DNA of 64,000 nucleotides from Oscillatoriales cyanobacterium (GCA_004292955.1 RDXX01000011.1:233336-297335); one strand, 5' to 3'. Shown: positions 37,703 through 42,594, counted from the first letter of the stretch. The notes: generated by a model not told the origin, from the letters alone. Program-made: numbers and translations.

Positions 37703-38326
37703 GTGACAGCTACTATAATCATACCAAAAAATGCCGACAAAAAATTAGATCCAGAATCACAGTCAAAATTAGTAAACATAGCAGAAACTCAGCCAAAATC
37801 TGCTTCCCAGAAAGTCATATCTCTAGAAAAAATTTTAGTCAGACCTCGTGATAAAATGGAGTGGGTTGACGGCAACTTAGTAGAGAAAACAGGAATGACA
37901 TTCAAACACGGTCTCGCTCAAGTTAATCTAGCTACTGACTGGAGAAATTACAAAAATTCCAGCGGACAGGGAAGAGAAGTTATTACCGAAATACTTTGCT
38001 ACACTGGCAAAAATGGCCTCCGTCCCGATGTCGCTTACATCACTCCTGAACTTTTGCCACAATCGGGGAATTTTACATGATTTTCCCAAAGCTTCCCACT
38101 CATTGCAGAAATTGCTTCTCCTGAAGATAGCGGCGAAGAGTTATTTGCAAAAGCTCAAGAATATTTGGAATCGGGATGTTTAGAAGTTTGGTTGCTCTTT
38201 CCTGAAGCTAGATTAATATTTGTGAATGCCGGGGAACGCTGGCTGTTGTTTAATGCAGATGAAGTTGTTAACACTCAAAGGGTACTTACAGGTTTTAGGG
38301 TAGCTGTCAACGAACTACTCATTTAA
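37703..38326 (+). pseudogene. Uma2/DUF820-family putative nuclease interrupted by one in-frame TGA
   Basis: ORF 37703-38080, then the same frame continues FSQSFPLIAEIASPEDSGEELFAKAQEYLESGCLEVWLLFPEARLIFVNAGERW... to TAA at 38324-38326; TGA at 38078-38080. Confidence 0.82.
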
Positions 38327-38530: not shown

Positions 38531-40051
38531 ATGAGTCAGCAGGCAACCCTATTCCAGTACAAACCACTACACAAGCCAAACCAACTGATTTGCGGAACTG
38601 GTCAAACCGCTGTAGTGACTGGATGGACTGTAAAGCAAGCGATCGCCAAACACCTTCACCCCCATGAGTTTGCTGTGATTGGACAGTTGTACAGTTCAAC
38701 TCGTGGAATTAGCTTTCTGATTCGGAATCTTTTATTCAATCCCCATGTTCGCTTTTTAGTAATCATGAACGCTACAAAAGAAGACCTCAATGCTGGTGGA
38801 TGTAAGTGCCTGCTGGACTTCTTCCGTAATGGGTTTACAGAAGGAACCAGTGATACCGGACGCAAATGTTGGGTGATTAAATCTCCCATTACTGGGTATA
38901 TTGATATTGAAATTCCAGCTAGTGCTTTGGAACAATTACGACAATCGATAGAGGAACCTGTAGAAGCAAAATCCATTTCTGAAGCTGTAGCCTCTGTCAA
39001 GTCTTACTCACAACAGAACATACTTGAACCCTGGGGTAATTACTTAGAATTTCCTATCTCTGAAATCGTTCCTACTATTCAACCTGGACCGCGTTACGGC
39101 CATCGGATAGAAGGAACAACTATTGCAGAAACTTGGGTTAAAATTATTCATCGCATCAAAACAACAGGTACAATTCGACCGACTGGCTACGATGGCAAAT
39201 GGCAAGAATTAATTGATTTAATAGCTGTGGTGAAAAATGAGCCACCAGGCTTTTATTTCCCCGAACCAAATTATCTGCCCATTGACCGTCCTTTTGTTCA
39301 AGAATACACTTCACAAATATTAGATGATTCAGTGAAACGAGAAGGTGTTAAATACACTTATGGGCAGCGTCTTCGTTCTTGGTTTAATGGACGCGACCAG
39401 ATTGAACAAGTTATTAATAAATTAATAGGTGAGATTGACGCTGCTAGTGCAGTTATGTCGCTGTGGGATGTAGCCGATCACGATTCAGGTGGCAGTCCAT
39501 GCCTTAACCATATCTGGCTAAGAGTTGTGGATAACGAACTGTCAATGACTGCTACTTTCCGCAGTAACGATATGTTTAGCGCCTGGCCTGCTAACGCTAT
39601 AGGATTGCGAAAATTGCAAGAACACATTCGAGACGCGATCGCCGATCGATCGGAGTACGATCTCAAGATGGGTCCACTGATTACCATTAGTCAGAGTGCT
39701 CATATCTACGATGATACTTTCGATTCAGTTGACCGGATTATCAACCAGCACTATCAAAAAATAGTTGATGCAGAACGTAGACGTTATTTCGATCCAAGTT
39801 ATTCTGATTGCGATTCAGTGGGAAACTTCATCATCAAATTGGAGGATAAAACAATAGTTGTTTCCCAAACAACTCCTGGTAGTGGTGAAATTACCAAGCA
39901 TTATAGTGGCAGAGATCCTCTCAAGCTATTACGAGAAATTTGTGCTAATTCTCCGGCAATACAGCCTGAACATTCAGGTTACTTAGGGCTAGAAATCCAG
40001 AAGGCTTTTGGCTGCATTGCAACTGGCAAAAAATATATTCAGGATCAATAA
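38531..40051 (+). CDS. Thymidylate-synthase-like protein with N-terminal DUF4346-like region
   Basis: SLWDVADHDSGGSPCLNHIWLRVVDNELSMTATFRSNDMFSAWPANAIGLRKLQEHI resembles the ThyA catalytic Cys and RSxD...N region; N-terminus WVIKSPITGYIDIEIPASALEQL. Confidence 0.72.
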   Translation: MSQQATLFQYKPLHKPNQLICGTGQTAVVTGWTVKQAIAKHLHPHEFAVIGQLYSSTRGISFLIRNLLFNPHVRFLVIMNATKEDLNAGGCKCLLDFFRNGFTEGTSDTGRKCWVIKSPITGYIDIEIPASALEQLRQSIEEPVEAKSISEAVASVKSYSQQNILEPWGNYLEFPISEIVPTIQPGPRYGHRIEGTTIAETWVKIIHRIKTTGTIRPTGYDGKWQELIDLIAVVKNEPPGFYFPEPNYLPIDRPFVQEYTSQILDDSVKREGVKYTYGQRLRSWFNGRDQIEQVINKLIGEIDAASAVMSLWDVADHDSGGSPCLNHIWLRVVDNELSMTATFRSNDMFSAWPANAIGLRKLQEHIRDAIADRSEYDLKMGPLITISQSAHIYDDTFDSVDRIINQHYQKIVDAERRRYFDPSYSDCDSVGNFIIKLEDKTIVVSQTTPGSGEITKHYSGRDPLKLLREICANSPAIQPEHSGYLGLEIQKAFGCIATGKKYIQDQ

Positions 40052-40089
40052 ATCTAAGCGTCGTAAAGTTAAAGCATAGGAAATAGTTT

Positions 40090-40959
40090 ATGTCGGTTCT
40101 AAGCGAGTGGGATATTATCAATGAGCTAGGTAGAGGGATATTTATTTATCCTTTTAAAGGGAGAGAACATAGCATCAGAGGTTGCTGTTTACGCCTAACG
40201 GCAAGTGAATATGCTTATACATTTAACATAGATCAACAGACTCAACAGAAACAAACATTGCTTTTAAAAGATCGACAGGATAATAAACTTATTAAAATTC
40301 CAAGCCGAAAAACAGCTATAATATGGACTAATGAGTCAGTATTTGTTAACAATTATTTATGTGGAGTAATTCATTCACAAGTAAAATTAGTGTCACAGGG
40401 AATAGGACATCTTGGAACAAGAGTTAATCCTAATTATGGAGGTGTGATGGCTATAGCTCTTCATAATTTATCAGACAACGATATACAGATTAAAGTAGGT
40501 GATACTATTGCATATTTAAGAATTCATAGGTTGAGTTCAAAATCTTCTTTTTCTTCGGCATATAGAGACGATCCTGGTAAGCTTCATGATGCTATTCCTG
40601 AAGACTATCCAACACCGCCGGAACTTAGAAGCTGGTTAAACGATTCACAAAATCTGTGGAGAAAAGGAGATAAAAATGATATTTTAAAAGCGTTAGAGCA
40701 ATCGTCTGAATATAAAAAAGCCAAGGATGAGCTTAAACAGAAATCTATTCGCTACCGTTTAGTTTTTAAGTATTTGCCACAGTGGGAACCGATGGTTTGG
40801 GCTACGATTGTCGCGGCATTAGCAGCAATTGGGGGAGCAATTGGGACATGGGTAGCAGTTTTGAAACCTTCTTCACCACCTTCTTTTGATCCAAAACCAA
40901 TCATCACACCAAAGACACAAATAGCACCCACCCCTAAAGCAACCTCTGTTCCAAAATAA
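40090..40959 (+). CDS. dCTP-deaminase/dUTPase-fold protein with C-terminal TM helix, predicted catalytically degenerate
   Basis: N-terminal LSEWDIINELGRGIFIYPF and VNPNYGGVMAIALHNLSDNDIQIKVGDTIAYLRI follow the DCD pattern; canonical catalytic residues not seen; TM MVWATIVAALAAIGGAIGTWVAVL and Pro-rich tail. Confidence 0.65.
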   Translation: MSVLSEWDIINELGRGIFIYPFKGREHSIRGCCLRLTASEYAYTFNIDQQTQQKQTLLLKDRQDNKLIKIPSRKTAIIWTNESVFVNNYLCGVIHSQVKLVSQGIGHLGTRVNPNYGGVMAIALHNLSDNDIQIKVGDTIAYLRIHRLSSKSSFSSAYRDDPGKLHDAIPEDYPTPPELRSWLNDSQNLWRKGDKNDILKALEQSSEYKKAKDELKQKSIRYRLVFKYLPQWEPMVWATIVAALAAIGGAIGTWVAVLKPSSPPSFDPKPIITPKTQIAPTPKATSVPK

Positions 40960-40984
40960 TACTGTTGAGAAAGCGTAAAAATCA

Positions 40985-41968
40985 ATGAACAAAGTATATA
41001 TATCTGGTGCTTTAACAGGAATTGAGAAACCAGCAGAAGTCAAGAGTTTCTATGAAGCCATTGGTCTGCTTTGCCAAGAAATAGGTTTTCAAGCGTATGT
41101 TCCACATATGTATACCGATCCCATCAATAACCCTGACATTAGTCCTAGCCAAGTATTTGAGAGAGACAAACATCAAGTTAGTACATCAGATTTAGTCATT
41201 GCTTACCTTGGCTCCTTCTCTTTTGGTGTGGGAATGGAGCTAGCTTATGCTGAAATGAATAATATTCCTATTGTGATTATTTATGAAAAAGATAAAGTTA
41301 TATCAAGATTTCCACTGGGTATCCCTACAGTAATTGCTGAAGTTCAGTTTCAGACTTATGAAGATGCTTTGAACCAACTTAAAAACGTTTTGGAACAGAA
41401 AAAAATACAGCAGCTTATGAATAAAACCTATCAAAGACCAAATTGGGATGAATACTTTTTGATGTTGGCAAAATTGGCCGCAACGCGATCGACTTGTCTG
41501 GCATTTCCCGTCGGCGCGGTAATCGCTAAAAACAGGCAAGTTTTAGCTACGGGTTACAACGGTTCCCCCTCAGGTTCGGTACACTGCACGGCTCAAGGCT
41601 TCTGCTATCCGGGTTTGAGCAGTTGCGATGCTAGCAAAACTTTGCCGTCGCGGGCGGTTCACGCTGAAGCAAATGCGATCGCCACTGCTGCCAAACACGG
41701 CATATCTACGGCTGGAGCTAGCATTTATGTGACTTTAGAACCCTGCATTTATTGTTTGAAATTAATTATTTCCGCCGGCATTCGCGAAGTATTTTACGAA
41801 ACTGTTTTTAACAGCGGAGAAAAGGCGGCCTTGAGAGATTCTTTTATAGCCGATGGTATTGTTGAATTCAAACAAATTAAGCTATCTGAAAGTACAGCAA
41901 AAAGATCGGCTTCATTTCTGCTGAATCCTACATCTGTTCCAAAAGACGATCGACCATTCGGTTCGTAG
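40985..41968 (+). CDS. Nucleoside 2-deoxyribosyltransferase-like domain fused to dCMP deaminase
   Basis: N-domain VYISGALTG...SDLVIAYLGSFSFGVGMELAYAEMNNIPI; C-domain with intact HAEANA and PCIYC deaminase motifs. Confidence 0.82.
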   Translation: MNKVYISGALTGIEKPAEVKSFYEAIGLLCQEIGFQAYVPHMYTDPINNPDISPSQVFERDKHQVSTSDLVIAYLGSFSFGVGMELAYAEMNNIPIVIIYEKDKVISRFPLGIPTVIAEVQFQTYEDALNQLKNVLEQKKIQQLMNKTYQRPNWDEYFLMLAKLAATRSTCLAFPVGAVIAKNRQVLATGYNGSPSGSVHCTAQGFCYPGLSSCDASKTLPSRAVHAEANAIATAAKHGISTAGASIYVTLEPCIYCLKLIISAGIREVFYETVFNSGEKAALRDSFIADGIVEFKQIKLSESTAKRSASFLLNPTSVPKDDRPFGS

Positions 41969-42018
41969 TCAGGACTTTAGTCCGCATTCAAGAAGGACTA
42001 AAGTCCTCACTACAAACC
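41960..42018. repeat. Palindromic intergenic repeat, copy 2
   Basis: GGTTCGTAGTCAGGACTTTAGTCC...GGACTAAAGTCCTCACTACAAACC. Confidence 0.85.
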
Positions 42019-42028
42019 TTCTCTCTTG

Positions 42029-42087
42029 GGTTGGTAGTGAGGACTTCAGTCCGCATTAAAGAAGGACTAAAGTCCTCACTACAAACC
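42029..42087. repeat. Palindromic intergenic repeat, copy 3 (tandem with copy 2)
   Basis: GGTTGGTAGTGAGGACTTCAGTCC...GGACTAAAGTCCTCACTACAAACC. Confidence 0.85.
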
Positions 42088-42090
42088 TTT

Positions 42091-42594
42091 TCAATCAAAC
42101 TCATTCACAGCTTGCAAATAGTCGATCGCCGCATCTATCCTCGAACTATACTTAAAAGCAAACTGATCGAACCAATATCTCTCATCGGAATTTTTATCCA
42201 AATTCTTCAGCCAAACCTGAGCTTGCCTAACTTTCTGCCTGTGCGTTTGTACGTCTAACTCTGACTGCACAATCTTTTCTGCTGGCTTCGGTGCTAGTGC
42301 CGTCACTTCCTGAGGTTTATTTTCTGCTTCGTGCAGAGGCTGAAGCGGTTGTTGTGCAGCCACTTCCTGAGCTTTATTTTGTGCTTCGTATTCAGCCTTG
42401 ATTTCAGCTAAATCCTTGTCAAAAGTACCAGAATACTTGATATCTGCTGTTTTAAAAGTTTGATTTGACGGCACTGCTGCTGGTTGGGAAAGCGGTTGTG
42501 CTTCCACTGGCGGCTGACTTGGCGCGTCGCGATTTTTTTGAGATGCTTGATATTCTGCCCTAAGTTCAGCTAACAGGCGATCGATCGATTCCAT
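42091..42594 (-). CDS. Conserved hypothetical protein with charged N-terminal repeats
   Basis: LLAELRAEYQASQKN / DLAEIKAEYEAQNKA; C-terminal QVWLKNLDKNSDERYWFDQFAFKYSSRIDAAIDYL. Confidence 0.6.
   Translation of the reverse strand: MESIDRLLAELRAEYQASQKNRDAPSQPPVEAQPLSQPAAVPSNQTFKTADIKYSGTFDKDLAEIKAEYEAQNKAQEVAAQQPLQPLHEAENKPQEVTALAPKPAEKIVQSELDVQTHRQKVRQAQVWLKNLDKNSDERYWFDQFAFKYSSRIDAAIDYLQAVNEFD

What the first reader, a model, noticed from the sequence alone, without database searches (positions are those of the whole stretch)
38531..41968. Candidate new nucleotide-metabolism / defense-like operon: ThyA-like + membrane DCD-like + deoxyribosyltransferase-dCMP deaminase fusion
Three same-strand genes with short gaps (38 and 25 bp) all map to deoxypyrimidine nucleotide chemistry. 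Gene 1 resembles thymidylate synthase (PC...RSNDMF...N). Gene 2 has a dCTP-deaminase/dUTPase-like fold with a C-terminal TM helix. Gene 3 fuses a nucleoside-deoxyribosyltransferase-like domain to a dCMP deaminase. Established knowledge: dCTP deaminases and dCMP/dC deaminases act in anti-phage nucleotide-depletion systems, and deoxyribosyltransferase-like domains recur in nucleotide-centred conflict systems. Inference: the set could sense or deplete dC/dU nucleotides during infection, with the membrane DCD-like protein as sensor or effector. A housekeeping dTMP-supply role is the main alternative.
Basis: partly seen in the sequence, partly recalled or inferred. Interest (0 to 1): 0.85.

Follow-up and report, generated by a model that had tools for sequence, protein, structure and literature searches.

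The report
Cyanobacterial thymidylate-supply operon, not defence
These three genes are a conserved cyanobacterial operon for making the DNA letter T: its first gene is an unusual three-domain thymidylate synthase that stands in for the usual cyanobacterial enzyme ThyX, so the operon is most likely ordinary DNA-precursor metabolism, but built from unusual and repeatedly swapped parts.

Summary
The three genes are there, at the stated coordinates and gaps.

Gene 1 is an MtrA-like domain, an archaeal-type thymidylate synthase and DUF4346. Among 248 cyanobacterial genomes it occurs in 35 and ThyX in 210; only one has both (about 30 expected). The host genome has no ThyX and no other ThyA. At one locus of the same genus, with the same downstream flanks, the first slot holds this synthase, a phage-related version of it, or ThyX; the slot before dCMP deaminase holds dUTPase, the deoxyribosyltransferase-like domain, or nothing. 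Gene 1 homologues also sit in many viral contigs and have moved repeatedly between phages and cyanobacteria.

Gene 2 has a dUTPase/dCTP-deaminase fold without the catalytic residues, plus a membrane helix: most likely a pseudoenzyme regulator or anchor. The N-terminal domain of gene 3 resembles DNPH1/Rcl nucleotide N-hydrolases.

The surprise: 28 of 35 carriers, this genome included, have no recognisable FolA, although ThyA-type enzymes normally need one. How they regenerate tetrahydrofolate is open and testable. The roles of gene 2 and of the N-hydrolase domain are inferred, not shown.

The parts
38531..40051 (+). Gene 1: thymidylate synthase of 506 aa with three domains (MtrA-like, TS, DUF4346); inferred to be the only thymidylate synthase of this genome
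38531..39106 (+). MtrA-like N-terminal domain (residues 1-192; the profile match covers about 40-141)
   Evidence: 17 of 18 domain sequences match an MtrA NCBIfam model (best E 2e-9), below the curated cut-off in the window protein; weak PDB hit to MtrA 5laa, E 0.06, with no His at the aligned position
39107..39727 (+). Thymidylate synthase catalytic domain (residues 193-399); catalytic Cys324 codon at 39500-39502
   Evidence: TIGR03283 9e-40; C324, R344, S345, D347, N355, H391, Y393 invariant in 32 homologues; TS fold by Foldseek
39812..40045 (+). PterinBD-DUF4346 domain (residues 428-505)
   Evidence: PF14251 1e-17, above cut-off
40090..40959 (+). Gene 2: membrane-anchored dUTPase/dCTP-deaminase-fold protein, probable pseudoenzyme (Asn113 at the dUTPase Asp position, codon 40426-40428)
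40789..40860 (+). C-terminal hydrophobic helix of gene 2 (residues 234-257), predicted membrane anchor
   Evidence: helix 234-257 in the (there low-confidence) model; Kyte-Doolittle peak 2.19 at residue 240, such a peak in 19 of 19 family members
40985..41968 (+). Gene 3: DNPH1/NDT-superfamily domain fused to dCMP deaminase
40985..41404 (+). NDT-superfamily domain of DNPH1/Rcl/MilB type (residues 1-140); presumed catalytic Glu85, codon 41237-41239
   Evidence: profile matches Rcl/DNPH1 8e-4, BlsM 2e-3, MilB-type CMP N-glycosidase 1e-2; E85, S79, S107 invariant
41432..41905 (+). dCMP deaminase domain (residues 150-307), expected to make dUMP
   Evidence: PF00383 3e-25; TIGR02571 ComEB 1e-34 (below cut-off)

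Best explanation
A core dTMP-supply operon. The dCMP deaminase domain of gene 3 makes dUMP from dCMP, and gene 1 methylates dUMP to dTMP as the cell's thymidylate synthase in place of ThyX (strongly supported by genomics, not shown biochemically). The DNPH1-like domain of gene 3 probably cleaves the N-glycosidic bond of an excess or aberrant deoxypyrimidine monophosphate (dUMP, or a 5-substituted dUMP or dCMP). It sits in the slot where sister operons carry dUTPase, so it is probably a pool-cleaning valve for deoxyuridine nucleotides (inferred). Gene 2 is probably a catalytically dead dUTPase/dCTP-deaminase-fold protein anchored in the membrane, which binds a pyrimidine nucleotide and regulates or localises its operon partner (inferred).
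For: Mutual exclusion: gene 1 in 35 of 248 genomes, ThyX in 210, one genome (G131) with both; expected overlap 29.6, hypergeometric P 3e-36 before allowing for relatedness. The host has neither ThyX nor another ThyA. Genomes of the same genus share the same downstream flanks (VWA, NdhN-like): TS-gene2-NDT:dCMPd (window, L006), TS-dCMPd (G043, G103), ThyX-gene2-dUTPase-dCMPd (G201), ThyX-dUTPase-dCMPd (G209). TS-gene2-NDT-dCMPd as separate adjacent genes in G077, G081, G107, G129, G147, G237 and L008. TS catalytic residues invariant. Viral contigs carry the same TS, some beside RNR genes or dCMP deaminase. The NDT domain is under strong constraint (dN/dS 0.04-0.19) and keeps Glu85, Ser79 and Ser107. 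Gene 2 lacks the dCTP deaminase Ser/Ala-Arg and Glu and the dUTPase RSG motif in all 19 family members, and evolves fastest in the operon (dN/dS 0.22-0.63).
Against: No FolA in this genome or in 28 of 35 carriers, although a ThyA-type reaction should need one. The window clade has lost both Arg of the dUMP-phosphate loop (DSRR replaced by DAAS). NDT versus dUTPase exclusion is statistically weak outside the locus comparison (0/9 against 8/22, Fisher P 0.04, not corrected for relatedness), and some carriers have neither (G043, G103, G109). No expression, enzyme or growth data.
Confidence: 0.8

Rival explanations
1. Anti-phage system: gene 2 senses a deoxypyrimidine nucleotide at the membrane during infection and the NDT-like/deaminase protein destroys dC/dU nucleotides.
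For: Gene 2 evolves unusually fast (dN/dS 0.22-0.63 against 0.04-0.24 for its neighbours). The NDT domain was never found without gene 2 or its short form. A CMP/hydroxymethyl-CMP hydrolase type is among the matches, which would fit attack on modified phage nucleotides.
Against: Far below the curated cut-off of the anti-phage dCTP deaminase. Core-gene flanks, not a defence island. Operon slots are exchanged with ThyX and dUTPase. The first gene is the sole thymidylate synthase. No NDT relative found in viral contigs and no separate mobile cassette seen.
Confidence: 0.07
2. Gene 2 is not a pseudoenzyme but an active membrane-bound dUTPase like the archaeal Thermococcales enzyme, and supplies the dUTPase activity that the host otherwise lacks.
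For: Closest solved relatives are Thermococcus dUTPase 8y1w and dUTPase P45 9ln0. No trimeric or all-alpha dUTPase found in this genome. Archaeal proteins annotated dCTP deaminase can be efficient dUTPases (PMC5122711).
Against: The RSS/RSG motif is absent in all 19 and the Asp is Asn or Ser in all long family members except G065. Gene 2 also occurs beside a true dUTPase in G201, G065 and two viral contigs. Relatively high dN/dS.
Confidence: 0.18
3. Gene 1 is a TS-like protein with another substrate (for example nucleotide hypermodification), and dTMP comes from thymidine salvage.
For: Extra domains; phosphate-loop Arg lost in the window clade; also found in viral contigs.
Against: Near-perfect exclusion with ThyX; Asn355 at the dUMP-selective position and the catalytic residues invariant; same-locus exchange with ThyX within the genus.
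Confidence: 0.05

Closest known systems
Archaeal thymidylate synthase (TIGR03283) / ThyA family PF00303
   Same: TS fold and catalytic residues; the archaeal model is the best match
   Different: Scores below the TIGR03283 cut-off; fused to MtrA-like and DUF4346 domains; altered phosphate loop; usually no FolA in the genome
ThyX (flavin-dependent thymidylate synthase, PF02511)
   Same: Same pathway role; occupies the same operon slot in G201, G209, G133, G203
   Different: Unrelated protein; ThyX leaves tetrahydrofolate reduced and does not need FolA (PMC9931769)
Thermococcales dUTPase (8y1w, P45) and bifunctional dCTP deaminase/dUTPase
   Same: Fold of gene 2 residues 1-160
   Different: Gene 2 lacks the motif residues and adds a C-terminal membrane helix
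DNPH1/Rcl, MilB, BlsM nucleotide N-hydrolases
   Same: NDT-superfamily signature SxGVGxE with the presumed catalytic Glu; serines aligned with two phosphate-binding serines of Rcl (residue roles from memory; alignment)
   Different: Weak sequence similarity (E 8e-4 to 1e-2); fused or adjacent to dCMP deaminase
ComEB-type dCMP deaminase
   Same: C-terminal domain of gene 3 (TIGR02571 1e-34)
   Different: Below the model's cut-off; fused to the NDT-like domain in this genus and a few neighbours
Anti-phage dCTP deaminase (NF041025, PADLOC dCTPase)
   Same: Shares the deaminase fold
   Different: 88.6 against 400 bits; no matching architecture

Membership tests
ThyA-family thymidylate synthase | PF00303 above cut-off | tested here: met
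   55.5 bits against 24.3
ThyA-family thymidylate synthase | Catalytic Cys, Arg/Ser/Asp, dUMP-selective Asn, His/Tyr | tested here: met
   C324, R344, S345, D347, N355, H391, Y393 invariant in 32 sequences
ThyA-family thymidylate synthase | Arg pair of the phosphate loop (E. coli R126/R127) | tested here: not met
   DAAS in the window clade, DSAR in the other clade. A partial deviation: the family call rests on the profile match and the other residues, so gene 1 is filed as a divergent ThyA-family protein
ThyA-family thymidylate synthase | dUMP to dTMP activity | not testable with these tools
   Needs complementation or an enzyme assay
TIGR03283 archaeal thymidylate synthase equivalog | Score above curated cut-off | tested here: not met
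   136.3 against 174.55 bits
MtrA (corrinoid methyltransferase subunit) | Cobalt-coordinating His | tested here: inconclusive
   The aligned column is not His, but the alignment is weak (E 0.06); ligand role of the His from memory
dCTP deaminase | Ser/Ala-Arg motif and catalytic Glu (E. coli Glu138) | tested here: not met
   Absent in 19 of 19 gene 2 family members
dUTPase | Motif II RSG/RSS and motif III Asp | tested here: not met
   RSG absent in all; Asp is Asn in the window protein
Nucleoside 2-deoxyribosyltransferase (PF05014) | Score above gathering cut-off | tested here: not met
   24.6 against 28.8 bits
DNPH1/Rcl-type nucleotide N-hydrolase | Catalytic Glu in SxGVGxE and phosphate-binding serines | tested here: inconclusive
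   E85, S79, S107 invariant in 13 and aligned with Rcl; residue roles from memory, a third serine is Ala here
DNPH1/Rcl-type nucleotide N-hydrolase | Hydrolysis of a dNMP | not testable with these tools
   No assay
dCMP deaminase | PF00383 with HAE and PCxxC zinc motifs | tested here: met
   88.4 bits; HAEANA and EPCIYC in the translation
Anti-phage dCTP deaminase system | NF041025 above cut-off | tested here: not met
   88.6 against 400 bits
Anti-phage system in general | Protection against phage | not testable with these tools
   No plaque assay

The most novel reading that the evidence does not exclude
The MtrA-like/DUF4346-fused thymidylate synthase makes dTMP without the usual dihydrofolate burden: the extra domains either hold and re-reduce dihydrofolate or let the enzyme take its reducing power from elsewhere. 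That would explain why most carriers have neither ThyX nor FolA, and would make it a third working solution for thymidylate synthesis, shared with phages.
Probability: 0.15. Interest if true: 0.9.

Novelty: new variant of a known kind. Interest (0 to 1): 0.58.

Why it matters
ThyA and FolA are regarded as a coupled unit, and genomes without FolA mostly use ThyX (PMC9931769, PMC1971073). Here is a cyanobacterial group, with related viral sequences, that appears to break this rule, so the missing source of dihydrofolate reduction becomes directly testable. One chromosomal locus in one genus also shows three alternative thymidylate synthases, a compact natural record of the replacement of an essential enzyme. 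It further offers candidate partners or substitutes for dUTPase in genomes where none of the known dUTPase families was detected.

Tried and rejected
Defence reading: rejected on model cut-offs, genomic context and slot exchange. Gene 1 as a dispensable accessory gene: rejected because it is the only TS found in the host. MtrA-like domain as a cobamide binder: not supported, no His at the aligned position (weak alignment). NDT domain as a plain nucleoside deoxyribosyltransferase: below the Pfam cut-off, nearer to DNPH1/Rcl. DUF4346 as specific to this TS: rejected, free-standing copies exist in this genome, G201 and G133.

Full report
What is there. Three + strand genes at 38531-40051, 40090-40959 and 40985-41968, with gaps of 38 and 25 bp, as reported. 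The host genome is G000 (7.29 Mb, 99.9% complete); named relatives of the locus are Microcoleus, Kamptonema, Crocosphaera and other Oscillatoriales records. Upstream lie a short Uma2-like ORF and an HD-type ORF; downstream, on the opposite strand, VWA- and NdhN-like ORFs, and then ribosomal protein genes (names of flanking genes come from reading the sequence, not from profile scans).

Gene 1. Its architecture is an MtrA-like domain, an archaeal-type thymidylate synthase and PterinBD-DUF4346. The catalytic Cys324 and R344, S345, D347, N355, H391 and Y393 are invariant in 32 homologues. The phosphate loop that reads DSRR in E. coli reads DSAR in one clade and DAAS in the window's clade. The AlphaFold model is of moderate confidence (pLDDT 77.5, pTM 0.53) and Foldseek returns thymidylate synthases. 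The MtrA-like domain lacks a His at the position aligned with the cobalt ligand, but that alignment is weak.

Role of gene 1. In 248 cyanobacterial genomes the gene occurs in 35 and ThyX in 210; only G131 has both, against about 30 expected (hypergeometric P 3e-36, not corrected for shared ancestry). The host has no ThyX and no other PF00303 gene. One genome (G036) has a classical ThyA; three genomes showed none of the three, which may be gaps in assembly or detection. This pattern indicates that gene 1 replaces ThyX as the thymidylate synthase.

One locus, several solutions. Forty further stretches were read. In genomes assigned to the host's genus, and in the named Microcoleus L006, the same VWA and NdhN-like flanks enclose TS-gene2-NDT:dCMPd (window, L006), TS-dCMPd (G043, G103), ThyX-gene2-dUTPase-dCMPd (G201) and ThyX-dUTPase-dCMPd (G209). 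Elsewhere: TS-gene2-NDT-dCMPd as four genes (G129, G147, G077, G237, G107, G081, L008), TS-dCMPd-short gene 2-NDT (G171, G075), TS-dUTPase-dCMPd (G151, G189), TS-gene2-dUTPase (G065), and a short gene 2 relative beside a canonical dCTP deaminase (G034, G153, G157, G005). The NDT domain was never seen without gene 2 or its short form. No NDT carrier in the sample has a dUTPase or a dCTP deaminase above cut-off, and none of those carriers has an all-alpha dUTPase. Outside the locus comparison the NDT/dUTPase exclusion is weak (0/9 against 8/22, P 0.04), and G043, G103 and G109 have neither.

Phages. 81 viral-contig stretches encode gene 1 relatives, 80 of which were kept. Sampled neighbours include ribonucleotide reductase large and small subunits, a RecJ-like exonuclease, an endolysin-like protein and, in four contigs, dCMP deaminase. 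Some of these contigs may be cellular; only a few were examined. In a tree of 58 sequences, cyanobacterial and viral rows interleave (7 changes, at least 4 forced by well-supported branches); the G043-type TS groups with viral sequences (93/99), apart from the window's TS (bootstrap not fully settled). No named phage record matched.

FolA. PF00186 is not found in the host; among the 35 carriers only G034, G052, G055, G075, G107, G131 and G239 have a strong match. ThyA and FolA are described as a coupled unit, and FolA-less organisms mostly use ThyX (PMC9931769; PMC1971073). Every folate maker needs some dihydrofolate reductase, and ThyX users without FolA also have an unknown one (PMC1971073), so the absence does not by itself prove a new TS mechanism; it makes the question pointed, because a ThyA-type reaction would raise the demand.

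Gene 2. The profile of 19 family members matches Thermococcus dUTPase 8y1w (1e-21) and P45 9ln0 before dCTP deaminases, and Foldseek agrees (pLDDT 78.6, low confidence after about residue 228). The dCTP deaminase Ser/Ala-Arg and Glu and the dUTPase RSG motif are absent in all 19; the dUTPase Asp is Asn113 here. All 19 have a C-terminal TM-like segment. In the pairs compared, dN/dS is 0.22-0.63 for gene 2, against 0.10-0.24 for TS and 0.04-0.19 for the NDT and dCMP deaminase parts. I read it as a nucleotide-binding, membrane-anchored pseudoenzyme; relaxed constraint and an arms race would both give this signal.

Gene 3. The C-terminal half is dCMP deaminase. The N-terminal half is under strong constraint and keeps SxGVGxE with Glu85, and Ser107; its best solved relatives are Rcl/DNPH1, BlsM and a MilB-type CMP N-glycosidase, at weak E-values. 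This suggests an N-hydrolase of a nucleoside monophosphate rather than a deoxyribosyltransferase. The substrate is inferred from operon position only.

Verdict. Observation confirmed; defence interpretation not supported; housekeeping dTMP supply strongly favoured. Shown by computation: domain content, exclusion with ThyX, slot exchange, interleaving with viral sequences, loss of gene 2 motif residues, lack of detectable FolA. Inferred: activity of gene 1, substrate of the NDT domain, role of gene 2, co-transcription.

Noticed in passing
window 41957-42092: Two 67-nt copies (91% identical), each an imperfect palindrome, directly after (and touching the end of) gene 3; looks like a small interspersed repeat.
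   Followed up: partly
window 37703-38080: Uma2-like ORF of 125 aa where relatives have about 207 aa, so probably truncated or frameshifted.
   Followed up: no
L259 (G000:C30:31213-31530), L258, L260: Free-standing DUF4346 genes in the host, G133 and G201; function unknown.
   Followed up: no
G131: The only genome of 248 with both ThyX and this TS; it also has a strong FolA match.
   Followed up: no
G133:C7:1786450-1786755: PF00303 match in a 383-aa open frame in a ThyX genome; not listed among gene 1 matches at the cut-off used.
   Followed up: no
L256 4926-6469, L257 4980-6237: Gene 2 relatives directly followed by dUTPase in two contigs classed as viral; the L256 contig also has an amidase.
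   Followed up: partly
L128, L136, L137, L151: Short gene 2 relatives beside canonical dCTP deaminase in genomes where no dUTPase above cut-off was found.
   Followed up: partly
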